From positions 5,264,496 to 5,328,495 of the forward strand of contig OW285193.1 in NCBI GenBank assembly GCA_935421135.1: a stretch of 64,000 nucleotides of DNA, given 5' to 3'. Of the stretch, positions 1 through 57,549 are shown one piece after another. Numbering within the stretch: the stretch's first letter is position 1; the number at the start of each line of letters is the position of its first letter. Below the pieces are notes generated by a model. It searched no databases and was not told where the DNA came from. It saw only the letters and a program-made list of their open reading frames with translations. The position numbers were made by a program, and so were the translations under genes. Source of the stretch: Bugulina stolonifera. Its lineage: Eukaryota > Bryozoa > Gymnolaemata > Cheilostomatida > Bugulidae.

Positions 1-825
1 GTTAAGTCAGCATATATAATAGATTAAATAAGCTTTTCACATAAAATACCTTTATATAATAATTTAAACACAGTTGAAAGAATAGGCTGTGTGCATGTGT
101 TAAGTCAGCATATATAATAGATTAAATAAGCTTTTCACAATAGTAGCAATTGAATAAATAAAAGGTTGTGTGCATGTGTTAAGTCAGCATTATGTAATTC
201 ATTAAATAAACTTTTCACAATAGTAGCAATAGAATAAATAAAAGATTGTGTACACATGTTGAAATACCTTTATATAATAGATTAAATAAGCTTTTCACAT
301 ACCTATTATTAGCAAGAAAAGGCTGTGTGCATGTGTTAAGTCAGCATATATAATAGATTAAATAAACTTTTCACAATAGTAGCAATAGAATAAATAAAAG
401 ATTGTGTACACATGTTAAAATACCTTTATATAATAATTTAAACACAATTGAAAGAATAGGCTGTGTGCATGTGTTAAGTCAGCATATATAATAGATTAAA
501 TAAGCTTTTCAATAGTAGGTAGGTGTCACTGTTTTAGTCTCCCTATAATAAATATAAAGTAGCAGGGTGTAAGTAATTTTTTAGCTTGATAGCATTATAT
601 ACAATAAACACTTCACAATTGCTGCCAATTACCCTATTTAGCACTAACCTTATGTTCTACTTGTTGAAATCTCTGATCAGGTGCTGACTAGTAGGTAGCT
701 GTCTCTGTTTTAGTCTCACTCTGTTGACTAGAGGCTGATTGTACATACTGCTAGAGTGAGAAACTCATACCTTAAATAGTAGTATTCAGTAGGCGGAGTC
801 TAACCATTTCCCCACCCTTTGCAAT

Positions 826-1140
826 ACCACCCCGATGCGTCCCGATGTGAATCCGAAGCCTCCCGATGCACCCCGATGCGAATCCGAAGCCTCCCGATGC
901 ACCCCGATGCGAATCCGAAGCCTCCCGATGCACCCCGATGTGAATCCGAAGCCTCCCGATGCACCCCGATGCGAATCCGAAGCCTCCCGATGCACCCCGA
1001 TGTGAATCCGAAGCATCCCGATGCACCCCGATGTGAATCCGAAGCCTCCCGATGCACCCCGATGCGAATCCGAAGCCTCCCGATGTGAATCCGAAGCTTC
1101 CCGATGCATCCCGATGTAACCCGATGCACCCCGATGTGAT
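826..1140 (+). repeat. 31-bp tandem array, left arm of palindrome
   Basis: Tandem repeat with a 31-bp period built from CCCGATGCA, CCCCGATGYGA and ATCCGAAGCCT blocks, with occasional C/T variants. Because 31 is not a multiple of three, all frames stay open and give low-complexity translations of no coding value. It is far more GC-rich than the AT-rich DNA around it. Confidence 0.9.
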
Positions 1141-1145
1141 TTGAC

Positions 1146-1488
1146 ACATCGGGGCACATCGGGGTGCATCGGGATGCATCGGGAGGCTTCGGATTCGCAT
1201 CGGGGTGCATCGGGAAGCTTCGGATTCACATCGGGGTGCATCGGGAGGCTTCGGATTCGCATCGGGAGGCTTCGGATTCACATCGGGGTGCATCGGGAGG
1301 CTTCGGATTCACATCGGGGTGCATCGGGAGGCTTCGGATTCGCATCGGGGTGCATCGGGATGCTTCGGATTCACATCGGGGTGCATCGGGAGGCTTCGGA
1401 TTCGCATCGGGGTGCATCGGGAGGCTTCGGATTCGCATCGGGGTGCATCGGGAGGCTTCGGATTCACATCGGGACGCATCGGGGTGGT
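1146..1488 (-). repeat. 31-bp tandem array, right arm of palindrome
   Basis: Inverted counterpart of the left array: CATCGGG, AGGCTTCGGATTC and CATCGGGGTG blocks at the same period. The two arrays face each other across a centre of a few tens of bases (about 1141-1170), so either strand could fold into a long hairpin. Unit order is not perfectly mirrored, which suggests unit gain, loss or conversion after the palindrome formed. Confidence 0.9.
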
Positions 1489-1803
1489 ATTGCAAAGGGT
1501 GGGGAAATGGTTAGACTCCGCCTACTGAATACTACTATTTAAGGTATGAGTTTCTCACTCTAGCAGTATGTACAATCAGCCTCTAGTCAACAGAGTGAGA
1601 CTAAAACAGAGACAGCTACCTACTAGTCAGCACCTGATCAGAGATTTCAACAAGTAGAACATAAGGTTAGTGCTAAATAGGGTAATTGGCAGCAATTGTG
1701 AAGTGTTTATTGTATATAATGCTATCAAGCTAAAAAATTACTTACACCCTGCTACTTTATATTTATTATAGGGAGACTAAAACAGTGACACCTACCTACT
1801 ATT

Positions 1804-3498
1804 GAAAAGCTTATTTAATCTATTATATATGCTGACTTAACACATGCACACAGCCTATTCTTTCAATTGTGTTTAAATTATTATATAAAGGTATTTTAAC
1901 ATGTGTACACAATCTTTTATTTATTCTATTGCTACTATTGTGAAAAGTTTATTTAATGAATTACATAATGCTGACTTAACACATGCACACAACCTTTTAT
2001 TTATTCTATTGCTACTATTGTGAAAAGCTTATTTAATCTATTATATATGCTGACTTAACACATGCACACAGCCTTTTCTTGCTAATAATAGGTATGTGAA
2101 AAGCTTATTTAATCTATTATATAAAGGTATTTCAACATGTGTACACAATCTTTTATTTATTCTATTGCTACTATTGTGAAAAGTTTATTTAATGAATTAC
2201 ATAATGCTGACTTAACACATGCACACAACCTTTTATTTATTCTATTGCTACTATTGTGAAAAGCTTATTTAATCTATTATATATGCTGACTTAACACATG
2301 CACACTGCCTTTTCTTGCTAATAATAGGTATGTGAAAAGCTTATTTAATCTATTATATATGCTGACTTAACACATGCACACAGCCTATTCTTTCAACTGT
2401 GTTTAAATTATTATATAAAGGTATTTTATGTGAAAAGCTTATTTAATCCATTATATATGCTGACTTAACACATGCACACAGCCTATTCTTTCAATTGTGT
2501 TTAAATTATTATATAAAGGTATTTTAACATGTGTACACACTCTTTTATTTATTCTATAGCTACTATTGTGAAAAGTTTATTTAATGAATTACATAATGCT
2601 GACTTAACACATGCACACAACCCTTTATTTATTCTATTGCTACTATTGTGAAAAGTTTATTTAATGTATTATATCTTATGCTGACTTTGTGAAAAGTTTA
2701 TTTAATGTATTATATATGCTGACTTAACACATGCACACAGCCTTTTCTTGCTAATAATAGGTATGTCATACTCCTTTACATATGTGCCTTTTATTCATTC
2801 AATTGTGTTTAAATTATTATATAATGGTATTTTAACATGTGTACACAATCTTTTATTTATTCTATTGCTACTATTGTGAAAAGTTTATTTAATGAATTAC
2901 ATAATGCTGACTTAACACATGCACACAACCTTTTATTTATTCTATTGCTACTATTGTGAAAAGTTTATTTAATGTATTATATATTATGCTGACTTTGTGA
3001 AAAGTTTATTTAATGTATTATATATGCTGACTTAACACATGCACACAGCCTTTTCTTGCTAATAATAGGTATGCCATACTCCTTTACATATATGTGCGTT
3101 TTATTCATTCAATTGTGTTTAAATTATTATATAATGGTATTTTACCATGTGTACACATTTATTCATTCTATTGCTAGTATTGTAAAAAGTTTATTTAATG
3201 TATTACATAATGCTGACTTAACACATGCATACAACCTTTTATATATTCTATTGCTACTATTGTGAAAAGTTTATTTAATGAATTACATAATGCTGACTTA
3301 ACACATGCATACAACCTTTTATTTATTCTATCGCTACTATTGTGAAAAGCTTATTTAATGTATTATGTATGCTGACTTAACACATGCACACAGTCTTTTC
3401 TTGCTAATAATAGCTATGACATACTCCTTTAGATATGTGTCTTTTATTCATTCAATTGTGTTTGAACTATTATATAAAGGTATTTTAACATGTGTACA
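1804..3498. repeat. AT-rich tandem repeats of the foldback outer arm
   Basis: Repeated blocks of roughly 80-130 bp carry the words GTGAAAAGCTTATTTAAT, ATGCTGACTTAACACATGCA and CTATTGCTACTATTGTG. Several block variants alternate (with or without CTTGCTAATAATAGG, or with TTTCAAYTGTGTTTAAATT). The same blocks in reverse complement fill positions 1-510. Confidence 0.85.
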
Positions 3499-3606
3499 CA
3501 TATGGATAGATGAGTAGAACTAGACTACACAAAGATTTTATCAAATCCTTCTCTATTTATTCTTCGGTGTCAGCACCCTCCAACCCGTCCATTTTATTTT
3601 CACAGA

Positions 3607-3753
3607 TTCGTCAGCAGAGAGGAGTTTGAGTACGTAGAAATGGACACGGATAGCGCTTACATGGCCCTGAGTGCTCGTAGTATAGATGCGCTCATCCGAA
3701 AAGATAAAAATTTATCAGAAGAGGAAACCAAACGTATAGCTACACCCAGCTAA
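3607..3753 (+). pseudogene. DNA polymerase family B palm fragment (Polinton-type), broken
   Basis: Open stretch of 48 codons and a stop, directly after a plausible splice acceptor (TTTTATTTTCACAG, ending 3605). It contains EYVEMDTDSAYMALS; the DTDS core is the metal-binding motif C of family-B polymerases. After the stop another frame continues for about 18 codons up to a GTGAGT donor-like site, so the coding frame appears shifted. A full protein-primed polymerase exceeds 1000 residues and nothing else of it can be recognised, so this is a relic. The assignment rests on the single motif plus the Polinton-like tip downstream. Confidence 0.6.
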
Positions 3754-3957
3754 AGACCGGACTCACCTACCTCTATGGTAAGCGGAAGGTTGCAGAAGAC
3801 GGGGTGAGTACGAGTCCTATAGAATGCTAGTACTGATTTCTCGGAGATGAGACTACTTCATTCGATAAATTGGAGAGTAAACGAACAGTGCAACATAACC
3901 CTTGTACATATACCCGTATATTTTTCTTCACATTCACTCTCTATTGTAAGGGGTCTC

Positions 3958-4010
3958 CGTCCTCAAAACGGAGGGTTTACCGGTTGTAACCTTAAAACCG
4001 AGCAATAAAA
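3958..4010 (+). promoter_or_regulatory. Conserved sub-terminal block with AATAAA
   Basis: A block with GAGGGTTTACCGGTTGTA and GAGCAATAAAACA is alignable with 56330-56380 (GAGGGTTTGCCAGTTGTA, GTGCAATAAACA) and, on the minus strand, with about 50220-50270. In the 8.1-kb element this block is the inner edge of the TIR, just beyond the stop codons of the outward-reading genes. It probably supplies the poly(A) signal. Confidence 0.5.
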
Positions 4011-4133
4011 CACTAGCTAATACATTAAAAACCATTTACCTCGCCAAACCAAAGGGGTAGACGGTACTAGTGCAACTTCCACTCATACTCACCCCTTATC
4101 AGTTCACATTTCTTCTATCGTCTTCATTCGTAG

Positions 4134-4268
4134 GTGGGGGGTGACATCGCACGCGCACGATGCGCTCTCTCCCTATCGGAGTTTGCTACCCGGGGGAAAG
4201 TGGACGCGGTGGTCGAAGAAATTGGTGGGGAGTCAACGACATCATCGTGGAGGCGGGTCTATTTGTAG
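4134..4268 (+). pseudogene. Exon-like fragment in Polinton remnant
   Basis: Follows a TTCATTCGTAG acceptor and stays open for 44 codons before a TAG. It has balanced composition (for example SLSEFATRGKVDAVVEEIGG), unlike the frames created by repeats nearby. A (GAT)n trinucleotide run follows the stop. No family recognised; it could be a decayed exon of an element gene. Confidence 0.25.
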
Positions 4269-4340
4269 GATGATGATGATGTTGATGATGATGATGATGA
4301 TGATGATGAGAAGACAGCCATCCATTTATTCCATTTATCT

Positions 4341-4631
4341 ATTTCTACCCCTCCGAGCGAGGATGTCGCCGGCGAACCACCTCGCGAGGTCTACGGTTTG
4401 AAGCGCGAAAGAGCCACCGCCTTCACTTTCCCTCGCCGCTCGTCACGGGGACGGGCGATTTCCCTAGGGGAGGGTCCGGGGGAAACGAGGGTTAAGGCGC
4501 GAGTCTTTCATCGGAGGTCCGGGGGCGCTCGAACGGAGGAGCGCGCGAGTGCGGTGTCACCCCGACCAGTTCAGTCTCAACAGTCCCCGGCGAAGAAATC
4601 ATCCGGAAGCACCACCACCACCACTCGGTAA
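4341..4631 (+). pseudogene. Arg/Ser-rich exon-like ORF in Polinton remnant
   Basis: Open frame through GC-rich DNA, encoding a basic, Arg/Ser/Gly-rich sequence that ends in QSQQSPAKKSSGSTTTTTR. It terminates at a TAA overlapping a good donor (CG then GTAAGT at 4628), so it may be an internal exon rather than a complete ORF. No ATG is visible near the start. The low complexity limits any functional reading; a basic DNA-binding protein is one possibility. Confidence 0.25.
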
Positions 4632-4669
4632 GTTTCTTATAGTAGTATAGTCAGCGTCGTAAACTCTGC

Positions 4670-5280
4670 ACGGGCACTCCGCACGGGCGTACCCTATCAT
4701 TACTCCAACCCGTATTTTTCTTCGCTTCACCGTACTATTACTCTCAAACGTATTGAAATTTAAAACAAATTCGTGTACCATTACCCTCGCTCACGTTTTT
4801 CATAGCCGGATATCATTACTCTAACCCGTATTTTCCTTCGCTTCACCCTACTCCAGCCGACGGTCCGCCCGCGAGGGCCGCGACGGGTCGTTGGGGCGGG
4901 AGAGCGGGGGAGGGGCGGGGGATGGGCGGGGGGAGGGCGGCGTGGGGCCACGGCTGGACTCGCGAACGAGAACCGCCGCGAGGCGGAGGGCGAGGCGGAG
5001 GGGTTTGGGGTGGGGAGGGGTGGGGAGGGGCGGGGACGGGTGGAGGGAGGACGGGTGGGGTTCGCGGGGCGGGGGGGCGCGCGCGTACGCGCGCGCCCCC
5101 TCGCCCGAGCCGTGGGACCGGGCGAGGGGTTTGCTCTTTAGACTGGGTTCTACGGAACAGCCGATGAGGTTTTTGAAACCCCACCCGCGATGGGGGGGAG
5201 TAGGTTCTAGGGCTTTGCACATAGAGTGAGGTTTAGGGGAGAGGAGGGGCGAGAGGACGGGTGGGGTGGTCGTCCGCCCG
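4670..5280. other. Non-coding: short direct repeat, then GC-rich tract
   Basis: A ~36-bp direct repeat around ACCCGTATTTTTCTTCGCTT lies at about 4700 and 4825. It is followed by a strongly GC-rich, purine-skewed tract (about 4880-5095) with GGGGAGGGG words and a GCGCGCGTACGCGCGC palindrome near 5078-5093. Long frames here are composition artefacts. It resembles the G-rich sub-terminal DNA of the 8.1-kb element in style. Confidence 0.5.
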
Positions 5281-5357
5281 GGGAGTTTTTGGATCTAGGG
5301 CTAATACGACGCGGAAAGGGCCGGGTGTCTGTGTAGATCTGCACTGACTATACTACT

Positions 5358-34885: not shown

Positions 34886-36450
34886 ATGGATGAGTACCAA
34901 TTAGCAGCCGGCTTGCTTTTTTTTACGTCAGCTTTTGTTGCTCTGAATAGAAGAAGAAATGCTCGGAGACGACGAGTTAGAAGATGGTGGACTCACCCCA
35001 TTAATCTAGTCCGGCCAGAGGAAGGAGCTTGGACTCTTTTGATGGAAAGATTTAGGGTTGAGTTTCCTGACAAGCATGAAGCTTGTTTAAGAATGAATAA
35101 AGATAAGTTTGACTTAATATTAAATTATGTTCAGCCAAGGATTGAAAAAGTGGATACCCACTTGAGAAAAGCAATACCTAGTGATCAGAGGCTCTGTGTT
35201 ACACTTTATTATTTAGCTACTGGAGACTCATTTAAGACTTTGTCTCTTTTCTTTCGAATGGGAGAGTCTACTATCAGAGAAATAGTATATGAGACCTGTC
35301 AGGCAATCTGGGACTCAATGCATTCAGATTATTTAAAAACTCCTTCATCTGCTGAAGACTGGGAAAAAATTGCTACTGATTTCTCCCATCTTTGGAACTT
35401 TCCACATTGTGTCGGTGCGATTGACGGCAAACACTGCACTATTCAAGCCCCTCGCAATAGTGGCAGTGAATATTTTAATTATAAAAAAACATTTAGTATT
35501 GTTCTAATGGCTGTTTCAGATGCAAGGTATATGTTTACATACATAGACGTTGGAACACCAGGTAGATGGAGTGATGGTGGCACCTTCGATCAGTGCAGTT
35601 TAAACCAGGTTCTGTCAGATGGTAGACTTGGTCTCCCCCCAAATGCTTCTTTGCCAAGTAAAGAAAAATAACTATCTTGTTAACAGTGCTGGTGCATCTT
35701 TATCTAAAATAGAAGTCACGGGTTTGCTTGATTGGAGAGGGGGTAGTGGTAATGTCTGTTAGTGTTATTTTTCTTTTGGTTCAAGAGTTGCAGCCCTCTG
35801 GCTTGGCTGCAAATCTCTATTATTATATACCATGCTAGTACCTTGTTTTAGGCAGCAATAAGATCGCTCCATTCACTTTTGTGGCAGATGAAGCATTCCC
35901 ATTGAAAAACTGCATCATGCGCCCATTCCCTGGTAGAGCGAATAGTTTGGAGAAGCACATTTTCAACTTTCGACTATCTAGAGCCCGCCGCACAATTGAG
36001 GTGAGTTAGTTCAACTATCTATATTTATTGTTTATATGCGATTCTAGGCTTGCCATATAGATTATTTTATTTCTTGATGGCAAATTGGCTTTTGATACAT
36101 CAAATTATTCTTTTATAACTTAGTAGTCTAAGAATTTCCAGCTTGACGAGAGCAATATCTAATTAACTTTTTTCAAAATTGAAATGAAATTCTGATTCCA
36201 AGTCGACAACTTTTCATTAATATATAATCCCTGATTTTATTTTCCGGACTTTCATGAGGCTGAATGTATATTTTAGAATGCTTTTGGAATAATGGTTTCG
36301 AGGTGGAGATGTTTGAGGAGCCACTTACACATGTCACCAGATCATGCCACATCAATAATACTTGCCTGCTGTGTGCTTCACAACTTCCTCCGTGAGCAGA
36401 AATGCGAGAACTACTGCCCACCAGGCTATGCAGATGCCATGGACATATAA
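34886..36450 (+). CDS. PIF/Harbinger transposase (DDE_Tnp_4), three exons
   Basis: DDE endonuclease of the PIF/Harbinger superfamily, which cuts the element ends and inserts at TWA targets, working with a MADF/Myb-like partner. Exons 34886-35657, 35852-36000 and 36277-36450 have GT/AG borders and join to 364 residues, normal for the family. Residues 20-35 are a basic arginine-rich stretch; 100-140 contain the helix-turn-helix-like segment (FFRMGESTIREIV). Catalytic residues appear as D180 in CVGAIDGKHC, D221 in TYIDVGTPGRWSDGG and E270 in FVADEAFPL. The conserved RLSRARRTIENAFGI spans the exon 2/3 junction. No stop or frameshift after splicing. The gene lies inside the 33959-38902 element, convergent with the MADF gene. 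Confidence 0.93.
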
Positions 36451-48774: not shown

Positions 48775-49316
48775 ATATACATGTAGTTATGTGTAATTCC
48801 TAGAGGCATCCATGAATCCAGTCCAGTAGTGAGAAAGTGAAAATATGAGTCAGAGGGCTAGCTGTAAGGTCAAAGTACACTTATGATGGATATTTAGCTA
48901 CATAATTTGGTTCTCTTGCAATGTTATGTAATGATTTTGGTGCACAACTTGTGAACATTTTTATGTGTTTTATAATCTGAGTTCAGCTACACAATATTAC
49001 AAAAAGTTGTCAGAGCAACAAATTACTGGCTGATTTTAATTGGTTGTTAGAGAGTTCAGTGGCTAATAAGCCTATCATATTTAATTAGAAAGAGCAGAGA
49101 TTCAGCTTTCAGGGAATAGGCATATTTGCGTGAGTTAAAATGTGTTGAGTGGTGATGTTTTAAGTATAGTCAAAAGTACCTAGCTGTGAATGCATAGTAT
49201 ACGTATTGCCAAGTTCTACTCCTAGGGATGTCTCTGAACTACACTGATGAGGTGCCAAACACAAAAAGTACACTGTGTACAGATTAAGTATTGTATTATA
49301 CATGTATATATACATG

Positions 49317-50305
49317 AGTAGTAATATCAGTGCAGATCTGCACAGACATGCACTCAAAATGGGTACGTCTTAGCCCTAGGACCTTCGTTTTAACGGGTGG
49401 GTTATACCCCCCACCCGTCTTGAGAGTCTGTGGTCGAGCGAAGAACTTAGCCTATGTGGATAGCCTTAGGACCTAAAATAATTTGCGGGTGGGGTGTTAG
49501 ATTATAGTACGGGTTTTCTGAGGAACTTTGGGTTATGTGGAAAGCCTGAGCCCCCGCAAACCGTAAAAAGACGGGTGGGGTACCTCGCGTTGCGGGTGCG
49601 GTGCTGGGAGACAACTCTCGTTACCAAAAACATAACTGAGGCTACTTCGACCTCGAACTAGGTCAAGCCACGCCCCCTCCGACCCCCTCCGACCCCAAAC
49701 TAGGTCAAGCCACGCCCCCTCCGACCCCAAACTAGGTCGAGCCACGCCCCCTCCGACCCCGAACTAACCCTACAAAGACGGGTGGGGTACCTCGAGTTGC
49801 GGGTGGGGTGATAGGAGTCAACTCCCGTCATAAAAAAGACGGGTGGGGCTACTCCGACCTCTCAAACTAGGTCAAGCCAGACCCTCTCTGACCTCGGAGT
49901 CCAAACCCTAAAAAGACGGGTGGGACACCTCTAGTTGCGGGTGGGGTGCTGGGAGAACAGCCCATCACTAAAAACAGTAACTCCCATCATAAAACAAAAT
50001 AGATGGTGGGGCTACTCCGACCCCGAATTAGGTCAAGCCACACCCCTAAAAAAGATGGGTGGGATACCTTGAGTTGTGGGTGGGGTGCTAGGAGGTAATT
50101 GCCATCATAAAAAAGACGGGTGGACCACTCTGACTCCGAGCTGATTTGACTTGAGGGGGGCTTATCTAAGTTTAAAAGATGGAACTAAACTAATATACCA
50201 TAATATAGCGAGTGTTAAAATGTTTATTGCGCAGTTTTCAGGCTACAACTGGCAAACCCTCTGAACCTGAGGCAGAGACCTCTTACAAGAATATAGAAAA
50301 CAACA
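49317..50305 (+). repeat. Left terminal inverted repeat of the Polinton-like element
   Basis: From the AGTAGTAATATC tip through GGGTGGG/CCCACCC-rich blocks and CCGACCCCAAACTAGGTCAA minisatellite units (49640-49760) to the inner conserved block around TTTATTGCGCAGTTTTCAGG (about 50222-50245). Counterpart of 56275-57445. Confidence 0.85.
50222..50227 (-). terminator. Poly(A) signal for the leftward gene
   Basis: TTTATT on the plus strand, i.e. AATAAA on the minus strand, about 170 bp past the stop codon of the 50399-51139 gene and inside the conserved inner block of the TIR. Confidence 0.5.
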
Positions 50306-50398
50306 AAAATGTTAATGGAATGCTAAATGTATGCAAAAAAAAATCATACCAATGAGTAAGTGATTGTAGTGAACCATGTGGAGAGGTGAGAGTGCTAG

Positions 50399-51139
50399 CT
50401 AGCTCACCATCTTGGTGAGCAATCGCTCTTTGATTCTCTGATCTAGGACGCAGCACTCGTAATATTCGCGACCTCTTCTTTTCCTTCTCTCGTTTCCCTT
50501 GTAGATTACCACACCGGGGAGGTTGCCCTCTAGCTGACTTATGTAGTGCTGAGGTAGAAACACCTCTCCATTAATCTGTTTACCATCTACAACGGTTTCG
50601 AAGGTCGCCACACCACTAGACCCCATCTTTGACGTAGTCTCTCCTCTTACACCAAAGTCCGCTGCCAAGGCCTGAATCGCCGTCACAACCAAGACACTCC
50701 CCTTGGGAAGAGTGGAGAGTGTCCTCACCCTGAAGTACTCCTGCAACTCTTTTACGCTCTTTTTTCTCAGAGCGGCAGCCACCTTTTTCATCGCCACGTA
50801 GTTGGGAGTGTACACGAATTCTAGATGTTGGAAGGTGTGCTTACAGTCTCCCCTCGCCTTCTCTCCCAAGTAGACCATAACTCTTGGTGAGAGATAGCCG
50901 CCCTTGTTCACCATTCCACTGTCACTAGTGGCTCTACACTTGGGAGCATGCATTGAGGGGATGTGCATCTTGGAGTGAACACGCCTGCCTTTACCATCGA
51001 AGTAGCTGCACTTGATGAGTAAGGAGTCTCCGTAGACCGTATCTACTCGTTTACCACCACTCACTTCTAGCACAGTTCCCACGGCTAGTGAGGCCATTTT
51101 AGCGAAATCGTCCATGGTGATTCGTTTCTCTTCCGACAT
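50399..51139 (-). CDS. Polinton-like element protein with two OB-like domains
   Basis: 246 residues from ATG at 51139; a TTTTGCGCAG acceptor just upstream (about 51147) suggests a 5' leader exon. I recognise no named family with certainty. The chain falls into two similar halves. An N-terminal block (LAVGTVLEVSGGKRVDTVYG, then strands to MHIPSMHAP) is echoed by a C-terminal block (LPKGSVLVVTAIQALAADFG, then GEVFLPQHYISQL and GVVIYKGNERRKRRGREYYE). The pattern of a Gly-turn, beta strands, an 'LP.HY' helix start and a basic YKG strand resembles small OB-fold single-strand-binding proteins found in animal virus-like elements. A Lys/Arg-rich linker (KKVAAALRKKSVKEL) joins them. Inferred role: binding single-stranded element DNA during protein-primed replication. 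The frame is intact, in contrast with the decayed surroundings. Alternative: an unrelated structural protein. Confidence 0.6.
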   Translation of the reverse strand: MSEEKRITMDDFAKMASLAVGTVLEVSGGKRVDTVYGDSLLIKCSYFDGKGRRVHSKMHIPSMHAPKCRATSDSGMVNKGGYLSPRVMVYLGEKARGDCKHTFQHLEFVYTPNYVAMKKVAAALRKKSVKELQEYFRVRTLSTLPKGSVLVVTAIQALAADFGVRGETTSKMGSSGVATFETVVDGKQINGEVFLPQHYISQLEGNLPGVVIYKGNERRKRRGREYYECCVLDQRIKERLLTKMVS

Positions 51140-51355
51140 ATCTCTGCGCAAAACAATAGAAGTACACTAAAGTCAATCGAGAGCTCTCAGAGAGAATATC
51201 AAAGGGTGTGCACATCATCAACATTGTAGACTCGGGGAAAAAAAATAAGTGAAAGGTGATTAGACAACTCACATCAGACAGACTAGATATCTCACCTCAG
51301 AATGATGGCCACACTCCGAGCTTTGCTCAGCTCTCTTCTACCCGCACTGCTACGG

Positions 51356-52135
51356 AGGGGGTAGGAGAGGGTCGGAGAGTGTTGGAGGAGGGTGGGAGAG
51401 AGTCGGAGAGGGTCAGAGGAGGGTGGGAGAGGGTCGGAGGGGGTCGGAGAGGGTCGGAGGAGGGTGGGAGAGGGTGGGAGGGGGTCGGAGAGGATCGGAG
51501 GGGGTCGGAGAGGGTCGGAGGGGCTCGGAGATGGTCAGAGGAGGGTGGGAGAGGGTCGGAGGGGGTAGGAGAGGGTCGGAGAGGGTTGGAGGGGCTCGGA
51601 GATGGTTGGAGGAGGGTGGGAGAGGGTCGAAGAGGGTCGGAGAGGGTCGGAGGGGGTCGGAGAGGGTGGGAGAGGATCAGATGAGGGTGGGAGAGGGTCG
51701 GAGGGGGTAGGAGAGGGTTGAAGAGGGGTCGGAGGGGGTCGGAGAGGGTAGGAGAGAGTTGGAGGATGGTGGGAGGGGGTCGGAGGGGTGGGAGGGGCTC
51801 GGAGATGGTCAGAGGAGGGTGGGAGAGGGGTAGGAGAGGGTTGGAGAGGGGTGGGAGGGGTTCGAAGAGGGTAGGAGAAGGATGAAAGAGGGTGGGAGGG
51901 GGTTGGAGGAGGGTGGAAGATGGTTGGAGGGGGTCGGAGAGGGTGGGAAGGAGTCGGGGGAGGGTGGGAGAGGGTCGGAGAGGATCGGAGGGGGTAGGAG
52001 AGGGTCAGAGGTCGTCAGAGAGGGGTCGGAGGGGGTCGGAGAGGGTAGGAGAGAAGTCGGAGGGATCGAAAATGGGTGAGAGAGGGTAGGAGAGGGGTTG
52101 GAGAAGGTTGGAATGGGTCGGAGAGGGTAGGAGCG
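51356..52135 (+). repeat. G-rich minisatellite arm (GGGTCGGAGAGG units)
   Basis: Irregular tandem units of 10-15 bp such as GGGTCGGAGAGG, GGGTGGGAGAGG and GGGTCGGAGGGG. Open frames of Gly/Arg/Glu composition run through it on the plus strand and Pro/Ser/Leu frames on the other; both are repeat artefacts. Confidence 0.9.
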
Positions 52136-52380
52136 GGATCGGAGGGATCGTACAACAACAATGCAGTGTTTGCGGGAGAGAAAGAGGGGGGCAAACGATG
52201 GGCTTAGCCGCGCGCCGGGACCCGGGTGCCACGCGGCGGGTCCCCCGGCCGCCCACCCGGCACCGGGCCTCATCCACTGTCGTTGGGGCGGGCGGCGCCC
52301 CCTAAAGGCTATGCAACGGGTTGGGAGGGTTTTCCTATCCACCCTCCAACTTCTGAGAGCTCCTCACACCTCGGAGGGGG
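52136..52380. other. Unique GC-rich spacer between minisatellite arms
   Basis: Contains GCCGCGCGCCGGGACCCGGG and GCACCGGGCCTCATCCACTG, with inverted GGGTGCC/GGCACC motifs, then a plain stretch to 52380. Not recognised as coding or as rRNA by eye. Confidence 0.5.
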
Positions 52381-54040
52381 GTGAGAAGAGGTGGTAGGGG
52401 TCGGAGGAGGTGGGAGGGGGTCGGAGAGGGGTAGGAGGGGGTCGGGGAGGGAGCGAAGGGGTGTGAGAGGGGGTCGGAGGGTGAGTTTGAGGGTTGGACA
52501 CTCTTCTCCGACCCTCTCCGACCTCTTCCCACGCTTCTCAGACTCATCCGACTCCCTCCTCCGACCCTCTCCCACCTTCTCCGACCCTCTCCAACCCTCC
52601 CCACCCTCCTCCGACCCTCTCCAACCCTCCCCACCCTCCTCCGACCCTCTCCGACCCTCTCCCACCATCCTCCGACCCTCTCCCACCCTCTCCAACCCCC
52701 TCCGACCCCCTCCCACCCTCTTTCAACCCTCTCCTACCCTCTCCGACCCGCTCCCAACCCTCTCCTACCCCCTCCGACCCTCTCCCACCCTCCTCCGACC
52801 CTCCTCCGACCCTCTCCCACCCTCTCCGACCCCTTCCGACCCTCTTTCAACCCTCTCCTACCCTCTCCGACCCCCTCCCACTTCTCTCCGACCCTCTCCT
52901 ACCCCCTCCGACCCTCTCCCACTCTCATCCGACCATCTCTGAGCCCCTCCCACCCTCTCCGACCCCCTCCTACCCTCCTCCGACCCTCTCCCACCTCCTC
53001 TGACCCTCTCCAACCCTTCCCACCCTCCTCCGACCCTCTCCCACCCTCTCCGACCCCCTCCGACCCCCTCCCACCCTCTTTCAACCCTCTCCTACCCTCT
53101 CCGACCCCCTCCCACCCCTCTCCGACCCTCTCCTACCCCCTTTGACCCTCTCCCACCCTCCTCCAACCATCTCTGAGCCCCTCCCACCCTCTCCGACCTC
53201 CTCCTACCCTCCTCTGACCCTCTCCCACCTCCTCCGACCCTCTCTAACCCTTCCCACCCTCCTCCGACCCTCTCCGACCCTCTCCCACCCTCCTCCGACC
53301 CTCTCCCACCCTCTCCGACCCCCTCCGGTCGTCTCCCACCCTCTCCGACTCCCTCCGACCCTCTTCTGTCCCTCTCCGACCCCCTCCGACCTCTTCCCAC
53401 CCTCCTCCGACCCTTTCCGACCCCCTGCTACCCTCTCCAACCTCCTCCGACCCCCTTCTACCCCCTCCGACCCCCTCTGACCCTCTCCCGCCCTCTCCTG
53501 AGCCCCTCCGACCCCCTCCGACTCCCTCCCGCCCTCTCCTGAGCCCCTCCGACCCCCTCCCACCCTCTTTCGATCATCTCCTACCCTCTCCGACTCCCTC
53601 CCACCCTCTTTTGACCCTCTCCTACCCTCTCCGACCCCCTCCCCCTTCTCCGACCCTCTCCTACCCCCTCTGACCCTCTCCCACCCTCCTCCGAGCCCCT
53701 CCCACCCTCTCCGACCCCCTCCCACCCTCCTCCGACCCTCCTCCGACCCTCCTCCGACCCTCTCCGACCCTCCTCCGACCCTCTCCCATCCCCTCCGACC
53801 CTCTCCCACCCTTCTCCAACCCCTCCGACCCTCCTCTGTCCCTTTCCGACCCCCTCCGACCTCCTGCCACCTTCCTCCGACCCTCTCCGACCCCCTCCGA
53901 CCCCCTCCGACTCTCCCCAACCCTCCTCCGACCCCCTCCAACCCTCTCCGACCTCCTCCAACCCCCTCCGACCCTCCTCCGACCCCCTCCGACCCTCCTC
54001 CGACCCCCTCCGACCTTCTCAGACCCCCTCAGACCTAGGA
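52381..54040 (-). repeat. C-rich minisatellite arm, inverted relative to 51356-52135
   Basis: After a short G-rich stretch (52381-52490) the strand switches to CCGACCCTCTCC, CCGACCCCCTCC and CCACCCTCTCC units for about 1.5 kb. It is the complement of the G-rich arm, so the pair can fold as a multi-hundred-base hairpin. Internal higher-order repeats of about 300 bp are visible (blocks with CCTCTTTCAACCCTCTCCTA recur near 52715, 52845 and 53075). Not coding. Confidence 0.9.
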
Positions 54041-54132
54041 GGGTCCTCATAGACTAGGGGTGGGTGGGTAATCACCCCATGATGATGTATATTCAGCATG
54101 AGAGCTAGAAAATCAGTACAAAAACAGTTTCA

Positions 54133-54187
54133 ACCAATAAAATCAAAGCGTGTACATACACAAGTACACACCCACTCTGTATAAAAG
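54133..54187 (+). promoter_or_regulatory. CCAAT and TATA box promoter for the rightward genes
   Basis: CCAATAAAA at about 54134 and TATAAAAG at 54180-54187. A TCATCAGCA initiator-like sequence follows about 25-30 bp downstream. The leader (54270-54325) holds three copies of CTTCTACTACACTCA. This is the clearest core promoter in the element. Confidence 0.65.
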
Positions 54188-54329
54188 AGCCAGCATTTGT
54201 TGAGTTTCATCAGCATCCACACTCCAGTGTAAGTGTGACAACAACTCACTACAACTCTTGCAGCAGAAGATTCTTCTACTACACTCAGATCTTCTACTAC
54301 ACTCAAATCCTCTACTACACTCACTCAAC

Positions 54330-54734
54330 ATGAGTTCTCAAGACATGAGTTCAGACAACTTTTTTTTCTCATCAACGCCACCACCGCCACCACCTCGCAG
54401 CGGTGACACAGACGGGCTGATGGGTTTAACCAACGCTGAGCTGGAGCAGGTGATCGAGTACAAAGAGGAGAGTCAGAATAGACCCAGAGAAGTTGAGGAG
54501 TTGAGGGCGGAGATGGCGAGACGGGAGCGCTTTCGAAGGAGGCTTGATATTCCAGCCGCGACTGGTAGAAGAGAGTTATTATCAATGCTACAGCGTCCAC
54601 CACCCACCAGCTCTCCAGCGCCTCATGGTGTTATATACTACACTGGCTCAAGAGCTCAAGATGACTTCTCAAGACATAAGTTCAAACGATTTTTTCTTCC
54701 CTCCGATACCACCACCACTACCTCCCAGTGGTGA
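54330..54734 (+). CDS. Small proline-rich / coiled-coil protein, copy 1
   Basis: 134 residues from ATG at 54330, 143 bp after a TATA box. An acidic Ser/Asp start (MSSQDMSSDNFFF) is followed by a proline run (STPPPPPPRSGD), then a heptad-like charged helix (LTNAELEQVIEYKEESQNRP, REVEELRAEMARRERFRRR), suggesting a short coiled coil. No family recognised. The last part of the frame runs into the beginning of the second copy in another frame, so the native C-terminus may be shorter or removed by splicing. Role unknown; neighbours are an ankyrin gene and an OB-like gene of the same element. Confidence 0.55.
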   Translation: MSSQDMSSDNFFFSSTPPPPPPRSGDTDGLMGLTNAELEQVIEYKEESQNRPREVEELRAEMARRERFRRRLDIPAATGRRELLSMLQRPPPTSSPAPHGVIYYTGSRAQDDFSRHKFKRFFLPSDTTTTTSQW

Positions 54735-54855
54735 TACAGAGGGTCTGATGGATTTAACCAACGCGGAACTGGCTCAGGTGATCGAGTATGAGGAAGAGAG
54801 TCAGCAGAGATCCGGAGAAGTTGAGGTGCTGAGGGCTGAGATGGCGAGGTGGTGA
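54661..54855 (+). CDS. Small proline-rich / coiled-coil protein, copy 2 (tandem duplicate)
   Basis: 64 residues, repeating copy 1 with changes: MTSQDISSNDFFF, PPIPPPLPPSGDTEGL, then LTNAELAQVIEYEEESQQRS and VEVLRAEMARW before a stop. Offset 331 bp from copy 1 and in another frame, so it needs its own initiation or splicing. It lacks the RERFRRR tail, ending at a TGA within the helix. A GTAAGC donor-like site lies just after the stop (54864), leaving open that both copies are exons of a longer transcript. Confidence 0.45.
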   Translation: MTSQDISSNDFFFPPIPPPLPPSGDTEGLMDLTNAELAQVIEYEEESQQRSGEVEVLRAEMARW

Positions 54856-55141
54856 CGAGTGAGGTAAGCTTTGTTATATTGTTAAATATTTTTTTGACAC
54901 ATTAGAATTCCTCGTGAGGCTACCCCACACCTAGTCGAGAGGTTTGTCGGTTATATCCTCAAATATGGTAATAAAACAATGTCTTTCAAACTCTTCTCTC
55001 ATTCAGACTGATTTCTAATTGGTCGAGTTCTAACACGTGATCTAAAAGAAATATTTCTTATTTAGCACCAATCCGAACCAGAAGAGTGACACTTTTGGAT
55101 TGAGCTTAGACGCGGGTGGATAGTAAAAAAGCGGTAGTACT

Positions 55142-55966
55142 ATGACTTCTTTCGATCGAGATTTAATGCCCAAAGGTGAGTGGACGACTTGGCACTGCTG
55201 GGATGACATTGTCGGTTCACTTTCGGAAGAAAACCTCGACTCTCTTCGCGAGTATTTTTGGGAAAAAGACAGTAACTTAACACCTCCAAAAGTCTTCAGA
55301 CACATTGACAACAGAGATCATGAGGCTGTGGCGTTTGCCCTACACATCGCCCCGAACTATCAGACGGTTGCCGTGCGAAACTTGTCTCGGCAGACTGTAT
55401 TGCACGCTTTGTTGTTGTCGGGGTGCAAGGAGAGTATCGATCTGAGCTTTATGGCATTCGATGCGAATCCCGCCATGGTTGGAATGAGTGATGTTGATGG
55501 ACAAAACCCATACCATTTGGTGGCAAAATTAGGAGAGGTTAACTTATTGCATCGCTTTTGTACTCGACAACCCTCACACCAGCGCGAGCGTCCGTACTAC
55601 AGAGTGCCACACTTTGATTTACCATCCCCAGCCATTAATGAACACGATGGAGAGGGGTGGGCACCACTGCATTACGCGATGGAGCACGATCTATTAGACG
55701 GGAGTACTACTCACACTTTCGGTACCATGCTTGAGCAAGACGGTGTTTGTCCCAATGTCAGGCGTTTAGCAGATGGACATACATGTACCATCTCTCACAT
55801 GGCAGCCGAGGAAGAAAATACAGAGGCTCTCGATAGGTGTCGCGTGCACAAGGTATCTATGTCAGTGCTCAATCAACGAGGGCTCAGCGCTCTCAACCTA
55901 CAAGAGGGTTTAGCAAACGAAGAGATGGTACGGCGATTGCGACCGCGATGCGGTGTACTCGAGTGA
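55142..55966 (+). CDS. Ankyrin-repeat protein of the Polinton-like element
   Basis: 274 residues, single exon, ATG at 55142. Ankyrin-type units are visible at about 82-114 (SRQTVLHALLLSGCKESIDL), 117-147 (DVDGQNPYHLVAKLGEVNLL) and 166-200 (NEHDGEGWAPLHYAMEHDLL), with weaker ones at about 211-235 (DGHTCTISHMAAEEENTEAL) and 243-266 (NQRGLSALNLQEGLANEEMV). The T/N-x-LH and G-x-x-x-LL positions are those of the ankyrin fold; spacing is loose as in virus-borne and IkB-like proteins. The N-terminal 80 residues have a Trp-rich start (GEWTTWHCWDDIV) without a recognised domain. No signal peptide or membrane segment. Poly(A) signal AATAAA at about 56138. By analogy with viral ankyrin proteins it could target host signalling, but that is inference. 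Confidence 0.75.
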   Translation: MTSFDRDLMPKGEWTTWHCWDDIVGSLSEENLDSLREYFWEKDSNLTPPKVFRHIDNRDHEAVAFALHIAPNYQTVAVRNLSRQTVLHALLLSGCKESIDLSFMAFDANPAMVGMSDVDGQNPYHLVAKLGEVNLLHRFCTRQPSHQRERPYYRVPHFDLPSPAINEHDGEGWAPLHYAMEHDLLDGSTTHTFGTMLEQDGVCPNVRRLADGHTCTISHMAAEEENTEALDRCRVHKVSMSVLNQRGLSALNLQEGLANEEMVRRLRPRCGVLE

Positions 55967-56137
55967 TAAAGACTACACTTTTTTTTTCACTATTCTGTAT
56001 ACTATTTTGCCACTGTTTCGCTTAGTTTTTTCATTATTTTGTATACTATCTTGTCATTATTTAGCTTAGTTTTGAGAAGTGTGAGCATGCTAACAATCTA
56101 TAATACTTTCAGCCCAATCTAATGTATAACTTATCAA

Positions 56138-56143
56138 ATAAAA
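56138..56143 (+). terminator. Poly(A) signal after the ankyrin gene
   Basis: CAAATAAAAC about 170 bp past the stop. A second AATAAA lies at about 56369 in the conserved inner TIR block, mirroring the one at 50222. Confidence 0.5.
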
Positions 56144-56274
56144 CAGTTTGACTTTTGTGTAAGTCTCTTCTTCTCGCGACTCACCGCACTCACACAACTC
56201 ATTGATGTAATTTTTTCCCATACATTTTGTAGATAAGTAATTCAGCGTGCACATTGGCACTCCATTGACATTAT

Positions 56275-57445
56275 TGTTGTTTTCTATGTATTGATATATA
56301 TATATTCTTGTAAGAGGTCTCTGCCTCAGATTCAGAGGGTTTGCCAGTTGTAGCCTGAAAACTGTGCAATAAACATTTAACACTCACTATATTCCACTAT
56401 GTTATTTTAGCTCCATTTTTTAAGTTAGTTAAGCTCCTCTCTGATTGGTCGATTGTTTTTGTGAGAGGGTCTGAGATGGTATGGCTGGACCTAGTTCAGG
56501 TCGGAGTAGCCCACCCATCTTTTTTTATGACGGGGTTGTCTCCCAGCACCCCACCCGCAACTAGATGTACCCCACCCGTCTTTTTAGGGTTTGGGTCATT
56601 TTTATGACAATGGTTGTCTCCTAGCACTCCACCCGCAACTCGAGGTAGCCCACCCACCTTTTTTAGGGTTTAGTCAGAGGGGGGTATGGCTTGACCTAGT
56701 TCAGATCGGAGTAGCCCACCCATCTTTTTTATGACAGGGGTTGTCTCCCAGCACCCCACCCGCAACTAGATGTACCCCACCCATCTTTTTAGAGTTTGGA
56801 CTCCGAAGTCGGAGGGGGCGTGGCTTGACCTAGTTTGGGGTAGGGATGGGGTCGGAGGGGGCGTGGCTTGACCTAGTTCGGGGTCGGAGGGGGCATGGCT
56901 TGACCTAGTTTGGGGTCGGAGGGGGTGCGGCTTGACCTAGTTCGGGGTCGGAGGGGGCGTGGCTGGACCTAGTTTGGGGTCGGAGGGGGCGTGGCTTGAC
57001 CTAGTTTGGGGTCGGAGGGGGTCGGAGGGGCGTGGCTTGACCTAGTTTGGGGTCGGAGGGGGTCGGAGGGGGCGTGGCTTGACCTAGTTCGAGGTCAAAG
57101 TAGCCTCAGCCATCTTTTTGGTAATGGGAGTTGTCTTTCAGCACCCCACCCGCAACGCGAAGTACCCACCCGTCTTTTTAGGATTTGCGGGGGGGGGGGG
57201 GGGGGGGGGGGGCTCAGGCTTTCCACATAACCCAAAGTTCTTCAGAAAACCCGTACTATAATCTAACACCCCACCCGCAAAATTTTTTAGGTCCTAAGGC
57301 TATCCACATAGGCTAAGTTCTTAGCCCGACCACAGACTCTCAAGACGGGTGGGGGTATAACCCACCCGTTAAAATGGTGGTCCTAGGGCTAAGACGTACC
57401 CATTTTGAGTGCATGTCTGTGCAGATCTGCACTGATATTACTACT
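56275..57445 (-). repeat. Right terminal inverted repeat of the Polinton-like element
   Basis: Mirror of 49317-50305, longer because of extra copies of a ~35-bp CTTGACCTAGTTYGGGGTCG-type minisatellite (56820-57090). It ends GATATTACTACT at 57445. Confidence 0.85.
57189..57212 (+). repeat. Homopolymer run of 24 G
   Basis: Uninterrupted G tract in the right TIR. The matching place in the left TIR (about 49552) has only CCCCC, so the tract expanded on one side or is a sequencing/assembly artefact. Confidence 0.85.
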
Positions 57446-57549
57446 TACATGGCAAGTATATAGTGTACATTTAATATACAGTGTACATGTATACCTATCA
57501 TGTATTTATGTATACAAGTATTTATACATGTATACCCTTGAAATAATAT

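What the first reader, a model, noticed from the sequence alone, without database searches (positions are those of the whole stretch)
49317..57445. Compact Polinton-like element carrying an ankyrin gene but no visible replication or capsid genes
The ends satisfy the Polinton/Maverick signature (5'-AG, ~1-kb TIRs, exact 6-bp TSD TACATG), but only three kinds of gene are visible inside: an OB-like protein, a duplicated small Pro-rich/coiled-coil ORF and an ankyrin-repeat protein. Known Polintons encode polymerase B and a retroviral-type integrase. An 8.1-kb relative that kept open, host-interaction-type genes suggests a satellite-like or cargo-carrying class mobilised in trans. The genes read outward to poly(A) signals placed in the TIRs, a compact symmetrical layout.
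Basis: partly seen in the sequence, partly recalled or inferred. Interest (0 to 1): 0.9.

Follow-up and report, generated by a model that had tools for sequence, protein, structure and literature searches.

The report
Polymerase-less satellite of stripped-down Polintons
This is one copy of a large family of small virus-like jumping DNAs in an animal genome; related copies carry the DNA-copying enzyme of the Polinton group, those that could be read lack the integrase and shell genes that Polintons normally have, and this copy has lost the copying enzyme too, so it looks like a parasite of its relatives.

Summary
In detail: 49317-57445 is a mobile element with ~1-kb TIRs, AGTAGT ends and a 6-bp TSD. 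Its ends recur genome-wide; 22 copies were gene-typed, some only in part; 17 of 18 with both ends held have an exact TSD. Nine (11.3-13.1 kb where whole) carry a C2H2-PolB with a Vsr-like insertion, the mark of group I Mavericks; eight of these have the same ankyrin gene. Twelve gene-bearing copies, this one included, show no PolB. No Polinton-type integrase, ATPase or capsid-like gene was found in the parts read. A sister family (PolB ~70% identical) has a ~9.7-kb layout of OB protein, acidic protein and PolB. Integrase/ATPase-bearing Polintons exist in the same genome. The window copy is a recombinant: its junction at 54848 lies 4 bp past the PolB stop codon of long copies. All 12 PolB-less copies have an OBa-type arm, its gene under purifying selection; the other arm is swapped. 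Best reading: a lasting satellite class that borrows PolB from relatives and probably integrase from Polintons. Two elements with such ends contain an integrase match but could not be read, so a complete parent or a split system stays open.

The parts
49317..57445 (.). whole element, 8129 bp; TSD TACATG at 49311-49316 and 57446-57451
49317..50330 (+). left TIR, with subrepeats
56251..57445 (-). right TIR
50402..51139 (-). OB-like gene (OBa), 246 aa; weak model with two OB-like units; an OBa-type gene is in all 12 PolB-less gene-bearing copies read; pooled pN/pS 0.23 over 66 pairs of 12 sequences from 11 copies
51353..52150 (.). G-rich half of the central tract (~10-bp units)
52150..52500 (.). 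GC-rich core of the centre, 95-98% identical in the closest copies, 78-80% in PolB-bearing ones
52500..54040 (.). C-rich half of the central tract, inverted relative to the left half
54330..54734 (+). shortened copy of the Pro-rich acidic ORF (PRO)
54661..54855 (+). second, truncated PRO copy; ends at the recombination junction
54848..54848 (.). junction: left of it like L012-L014 (arms with OBb), right of it like the stretch that starts 4 bp past the PolB stop codon of L028
55142..55966 (+). ankyrin-type gene (ANKa), 274 aa; 97.1-97.8% identical in the six whole PolB-bearing copies
513..5357 (-). remains of a second, PolB-deleted element of the sister family (end AGTAGTATAGTC... at 5357; centre repeats 513-1801; PolB 3' remnants 3640-3827); its other end lies outside the window

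Best explanation
The element is a satellite of a reduced Polinton/Maverick lineage. Shown: in this genome the lineage exists as (i) 11.3-13.1 kb copies with PolB, (ii) 8.1-11.0 kb copies without PolB that share an OBa-type arm, and (iii) a sister family of about 9.7 kb whose read parts hold OB protein, small acidic protein and PolB only; all have AGTAGT ends. Inferred: PolB made by a long copy starts at the shared TIR ends (protein-primed, as in Polintons), the OB protein coats displaced single strands, and linear copies are inserted with 6-bp TSDs by an integrase from integrase-bearing relatives in the same genome. Satellites form when replication or repair switches arms across the inverted GC-rich centre, replacing PolB by another arm while both TIRs are kept. 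The ankyrin gene is cargo inherited from the PolB-bearing parent; its function is unknown and a host-interaction role is a guess.
For: Shared TIR and exact TSDs. Six whole PolB-bearing copies, layout OBb-PRO | PolB-ANKa. PolB: PF03175 2e-6, C2H2 fingers, Vsr-like stretch (phrog_13076 4e-7; Pfam Vsr 0.004, below cut-off), GT-AG intron borders by eye; the Vsr insertion marks group I Mavericks (PMC10328495, passage). 12 of 12 PolB-less gene-bearing copies have an OBa-type arm (in L029 only 85-90% identical and in two pieces), 0 of 6 whole PolB copies do; second arms are ANKa (6), OBb (3), OBa again (1), OBc+ANKb (2). Two different joints where PolB was lost, window 54848 and 124 bp further on in L009-L011/L034/L035. 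PolB omega 0.09-0.17 between subfamilies; pooled pN/pS OBa 0.23, ANKa 0.12. No integrase/ATPase/capsid-like match in the held loci. Possible donors: 6 Polintons with PolB, integrase frame and A32 ATPase and a high-copy group with integrase and a weaker ATPase match at fixed spacing.
Against: No expression, replication or transposition was observed. Integrase supply in trans is inferred; the ends of the integrase-bearing Polintons could not be read. Two of 29 end-paired elements contain an integrase match, so an ordinary parent with PolB and INT may exist. The integrase identity itself is modest: the Polinton A frame has no Pfam or PDB hit, the high-copy fragment has rve at 2e-5, below cut-off, L045 at 0.08. 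Selection on ANKa within the satellites cannot be shown (1-3 synonymous against 2-4 non-synonymous changes between close copies). The OB fold rests on a weak model (pLDDT 61; no Foldseek match at E <= 0.001) and no sequence search supports it. L033/34 and L035/36 were read only in part.
Confidence: 0.65

Rival explanations
1. Split system within the family: integrase is supplied by sister elements with the same TIRs (the two integrase-bearing ones), PolB by others, OB/ankyrin by satellites, so that no single element is complete. (Compatible with the satellite reading; it differs on the integrase source.)
For: Two of 29 end-paired elements hold an integrase match; the fragment read from one (L045) is 72% identical over 113 aa to the high-copy Polinton integrase. 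0 of 30 listed integrase places on C1/C2 lie in the 47 element spans listed there.
Against: The two elements were not read beyond 340 bases: they may hold PolB as well, or a chance insertion.
Confidence: 0.25
2. An ordinary autonomous parent with PolB and INT (perhaps capsid genes) exists among the unread 10-13 kb copies; PolB-only and PolB-less copies are its deletion derivatives. (Also compatible with PolB-less copies being satellites.)
For: Several paired copies of 10-13 kb were not read; two contain an integrase match.
Against: The sister family is close to 9.65-9.7 kb (medians of the 47 listed pairs of both families), no integrase was found in its read parts, and its PolB shows no stop in 49 of 50 scored places, unlike random deletion products. 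Of 58 scored PolB places 1 has an ATPase place within 9.7 kb (C8:4993174).
Confidence: 0.3
3. The PolB protein's own Vsr-like nuclease/zinc-finger part does the insertion and no integrase is needed.
For: The PolB frame that holds the nuclease-like part is under purifying selection between subfamilies.
Against: The same insertion is reported for group I Mavericks, which include the vertebrate elements (PMC10328495, passage), and intact vertebrate Mavericks have an integrase and 6-bp TSDs (PMC8097293, passages).
Confidence: 0.05
4. Dead deletion product without biology.
For: PRO ORFs are truncated here; 3 of 12 OBa frames and 1 of 12 ANKa frames have stops.
Against: Two different PolB-less joints, many copies with exact TSDs, an OBa gene with pN/pS 0.23.
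Confidence: 0.1

Closest known systems
Group I Mavericks/Polintons
   Same: PolB with Vsr-like insertion (passage), AGTAGT ends (PMC8097293 passage), TIRs, 6-bp TSD
   Different: 8-13 kb instead of 15-20 kb (PMC4028283 passage); no integrase, ATPase or capsid-like gene found in the parts read; PolB with introns; OB-like gene and ankyrin cargo
Capsid-less Polintons of a 72-element survey (PMC4028283, section 4 read)
   Same: nine elements lacked capsid, protease and ATPase genes together
   Different: that section does not report loss of integrase or PolB-less satellites
Adintoviruses and other Polinton-like viruses (PMC11071296, passages)
   Same: PolB-bearing linear elements
   Different: adintoviruses are defined there by hexon and OTU-PolB and carry an integrase; hexon and integrase not seen here, OTU not tested
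Palindromic or defective deletion genomes of linear viruses (recalled) and transpovirons (PMC3671162, passages)
   Same: small derivatives with kept ends; one copy with the same OB gene on both arms (L015)
   Different: chromosomal, with TSDs and a gene of their own under selection

Membership tests
Polinton/Maverick (window copy) | TIRs with 5'-AG / AGTAGT ends | tested here: met
   motif reported in PMC8097293 (passage)
Polinton/Maverick (window copy) | 6-bp TSD | tested here: met
   17 of 18 copies with both ends held are exact
Polinton/Maverick (window copy) | protein-primed-type PolB gene | tested here: not met
   no match in the window copy; present in 9 of 22 gene-typed copies
Polinton/Maverick (family) | retroviral-type integrase | tested here: inconclusive
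   none in held loci; an integrase match in 2 of 29 end-paired elements, unread but for 340 bases of one
Polinton/Maverick (family) | A32/FtsK-type ATPase and capsid genes | tested here: inconclusive
   no tblastn match in held loci of the Polinton A ATPase and its capsid-like neighbour, whose role is unproven; several copies unread; protease not tested
Group I Maverick | Vsr-like insertion in PolB | tested here: met
   phrog_13076 E 4e-7, Pfam Vsr 0.004 and PDB Vsr 0.018 (weak), between palm and the YVEMDTDS motif; definition
Group I Maverick | PolB related to those of other animals | tested here: met
   551 proteins at E <= 0.001 of 7995 scored; names seen include Exaiptasia, Holothuria, Branchiostoma, Asterias, Lytechinus
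Non-autonomous satellite | shares ends with a replicase-bearing element and lacks the replicase | tested here: met
Non-autonomous satellite | mobilised in trans | not testable with these tools
   needs expression or mobility data
ssDNA-binding OB protein (RPA/SSB type) | OB folds | tested here: inconclusive

The most novel reading that the evidence does not exclude
A segmented (multipartite) Polinton: PolB, integrase and OB/ankyrin functions sit on separate chromosomal elements that share TIRs, with no complete element, and a long-lived satellite line keeps its own OBa arm and swaps the other arm across a central inverted repeat.
Probability: 0.22. Interest if true: 0.85.

Novelty: new variant of a known kind. 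Interest (0 to 1): 0.62.

Why it matters
Polintons are described as encoding both a protein-primed PolB and an integrase. A lineage with several hundred elements whose read members keep only the replication module, plus a satellite class with a selected gene of its own, would show that Polinton replication and integration can be uncoupled inside one genome and that Polintons have satellites in animals. [quoted passage not shown]
Full report
Observation. The reported structure is real. TIRs of about 1 kb (966 aligned columns, 90.3% identical), AGTAGT ends and a TACATG TSD bound 49317-57445. Three kinds of gene are visible, read outward from a GC-rich centre.

Copies. The first 301 bases of the TIR match 40 places in the same 235-Mb genome at 89-100% identity over nearly their whole length (40 of 94 candidates scored). 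I fetched 23 copies wholly or in part. One (L040) shows only an end; 22 could be gene-typed. Both ends are held for 18: the 6-bp TSD is exact in 17, with one mismatch in one, and 0 of 306 when partners are swapped.

Gene content. Nine copies carry PolB: six whole (L017/18, L019/20, L021/22, L023/24, L025/26, L027/28; 11.3-13.1 kb), two read in part (L031/32, L037) and one decayed (L039). The whole ones have the layout OBb-PRO | PolB-ANKa; ANKa is also in L031 (interrupted) and L037, not seen in L039. Twelve carry genes but show no PolB: window, L009-L016, L029/30, L033/34, L035/36 (the last two pairs read only in part, because of large insertions). One (L038, 5.9 kb) has no recognised gene. 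Each of the 12 has an OBa-type arm (95.5% or more identical to the window's, except L029 with 85-90% in two pieces and L035 with 96% and two stops); the opposite arm is ANKa in six, OBb in three, OBa again in one (L015), and OBc with ANKb in two (L016, L029/30). L016 also carries a dUTPase (PF00692, E 2e-31). In the six whole PolB copies the OB protein is 73-74% identical to OBa.

The polymerase. The main exon (1270 aa in L028) has C2H2 fingers, a DNA_pol_B_2 match and a Vsr-like stretch. Intron borders can be seen by eye (no transcript), and the last exon holds the YVEMDTDS motif (motif roles recalled). A passage of PMC10328495 names a ~140-aa Vsr-like insertion as the mark of group I Mavericks. 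551 relatives at E <= 0.001 (only 7995 candidates scored) include several animals. Between subfamilies omega is 0.09-0.17; within subfamilies there are few changes and ratios of 0.5-1.4, the usual picture of a selected lineage with neutrally ageing copies.

The window copy as a recombinant. Left of 54848 it matches L012-L014 at 87-89%; right of it, it matches long copies from a point 4 bp past the PolB stop codon (98% over 54848-56169 to L018/L019/L022, 95.5% to L025/L028). L009-L011, L034 and L035 match the window only from 54972; in L009 that point corresponds to L028 4743, with an OBa-type arm on the other side. So PolB was lost at two different joints. The window's ANKa differs from satellites by 1-3 synonymous changes, from L018/L019/L022 by 3, and from L024/L025/L028 by 19 (6 non-synonymous).

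Selection. Pooled pN/pS: ANKa 0.12 (66 pairs of 12 sequences, 11 without stops), OBa 0.23 (66 pairs of 12 sequences from 11 copies, 9 without stops), OBb 0.35 (36 pairs of 9 sequences, 6 without stops). ANKb, one pair, gives 0.85. Pairs are not independent. The ANKa value comes mostly from the difference between PolB subfamilies, so it does not show selection inside the satellites. OBa was seen only in copies without PolB and does speak for selection there, unless an unread autonomous subfamily also carries it.

The sister family. PolB places in the genome: 438 candidates, 58 scored: 8 at 96-100% and 50 at 69-70%. The 69-70% group has ends AGTAGTATAGTCAGTGCAGATCTACACAGACACC. In the 9.7-kb copy C1:35618656-35628355 the left 4 kb holds a TIR, an OB protein (40% identical to the window's), a small acidic protein (35% over 82 aa to PRO), a central inverted array of ~30-bp repeats and the zinc-finger exon of PolB; the right end, read in other copies (L041), holds the PolB end, 1.4 kb without a recognised gene, and the TIR. 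A pattern covering both families has 340 forward and 331 reverse exact matches, control 0 and 0. Of the first 100 listed (C1 and part of C2), 94 form 47 pairs of 2.8-11.8 kb with medians of 9.65 kb (C1) and 9.69 kb (C2); 17 of the 20 PolB places on C1 and C2 lie inside them (one of the other three is beyond the listed part) and 0 of 30 listed integrase places do.

Integrase. tblastn of three integrase fragments, an A32 ATPase and three neighbouring frames found nothing at E <= 0.01 in the held loci L001-L042 and the window; a Ty3 element inside L032 is a separate insertion. The genome does hold Polintons. Six places have PolB (PF03175, 2e-25 to 5e-27 in five, in two weaker pieces in the sixth), an integrase frame and a 200-aa A32 ATPase within 5.2 kb (4 kb of one read as L043). 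A second, high-copy group has an integrase (213 DNA candidates, 40 of 40 scored identical) and an ATPase match of E about 0.002-0.005, above the curated cut-off. Over both groups 107 of the 150 listed integrase places have an ATPase place within 6 kb, 95 of them at one of two distances that reflect the strand. The integrase label is modest for single pieces: no Pfam or PDB hit for the Polinton A frame, which is cut; rve 2e-5 for the high-copy fragment; the two are 29% identical. These are possible donors in trans. Against a simple story, 2 of 29 end-paired family-1 elements contain an integrase match (C6:3785495-3796650 and C9:1531492-1543414). The fragment from the first is 72% identical to the high-copy integrase but alone has rve at only 0.08. 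By area about 0.2 such overlaps would be expected (my estimate: 150 places, 0.37 Mb of elements, 235 Mb), so at least one is probably real. These two, and other unread copies of 10-13 kb, leave open a complete parent or a split system.

Mechanism. Shown: shared ends, TSDs, arm exchange, PolB in some copies, selection on PolB and OBa. Inferred: TIR-primed replication by PolB from a long copy, coating by the OB protein, insertion by an integrase made elsewhere, arm exchange across the inverted centre during copying. I put 0.65 on the satellite reading as a whole; the first two rivals differ from it mainly on where the integrase comes from and can be true along with it.

Literature. Capsid-less Polintons are known: nine of 72 lacked MCP, protease and ATPase (PMC4028283, section read). 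I found no description of integrase-less, PolB-only Polintons with PolB-less satellites in the searches listed under Tried and rejected; subscription papers and Repbase entries were not searched.

Noticed in passing
window 513-5357: Remains of a sister-family element, PolB deleted except for two 3' pieces, so the window holds two PolB-less members of the superfamily.
   Followed up: partly
window 34886-35671: Open frame with DDE_Tnp_4 (E 8e-12) and HTH_Tnp_4 (Harbinger-type transposase, name recalled).
   Followed up: no
L016 3352-3792: dUTPase gene beside the centre of a PolB-less copy: cargo differs between copies.
   Followed up: partly
G000 C11:3523052-3580199 and C5:5950521-5980197: End pairs 57 and 30 kb apart; the first has a matching TSD (CCCATT). 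Probably large nested insertions into an element.
   Followed up: no
L041 (C6:9624000-9633900): Two sister-family copies, identical over the aligned stretches, face each other about 3.8 kb apart around a frame that looks like a DGAT2/MOGAT-type gene (by eye).
   Followed up: no
G000 genome-wide: A high-copy Polinton-like group whose 450-bp integrase fragment is identical in 40 of 40 scored copies (213 candidates): a very recent burst.
   Followed up: partly
window 57189-57212: A run of 24 G inside the right TIR, a likely place for sequencing error.
   Followed up: no
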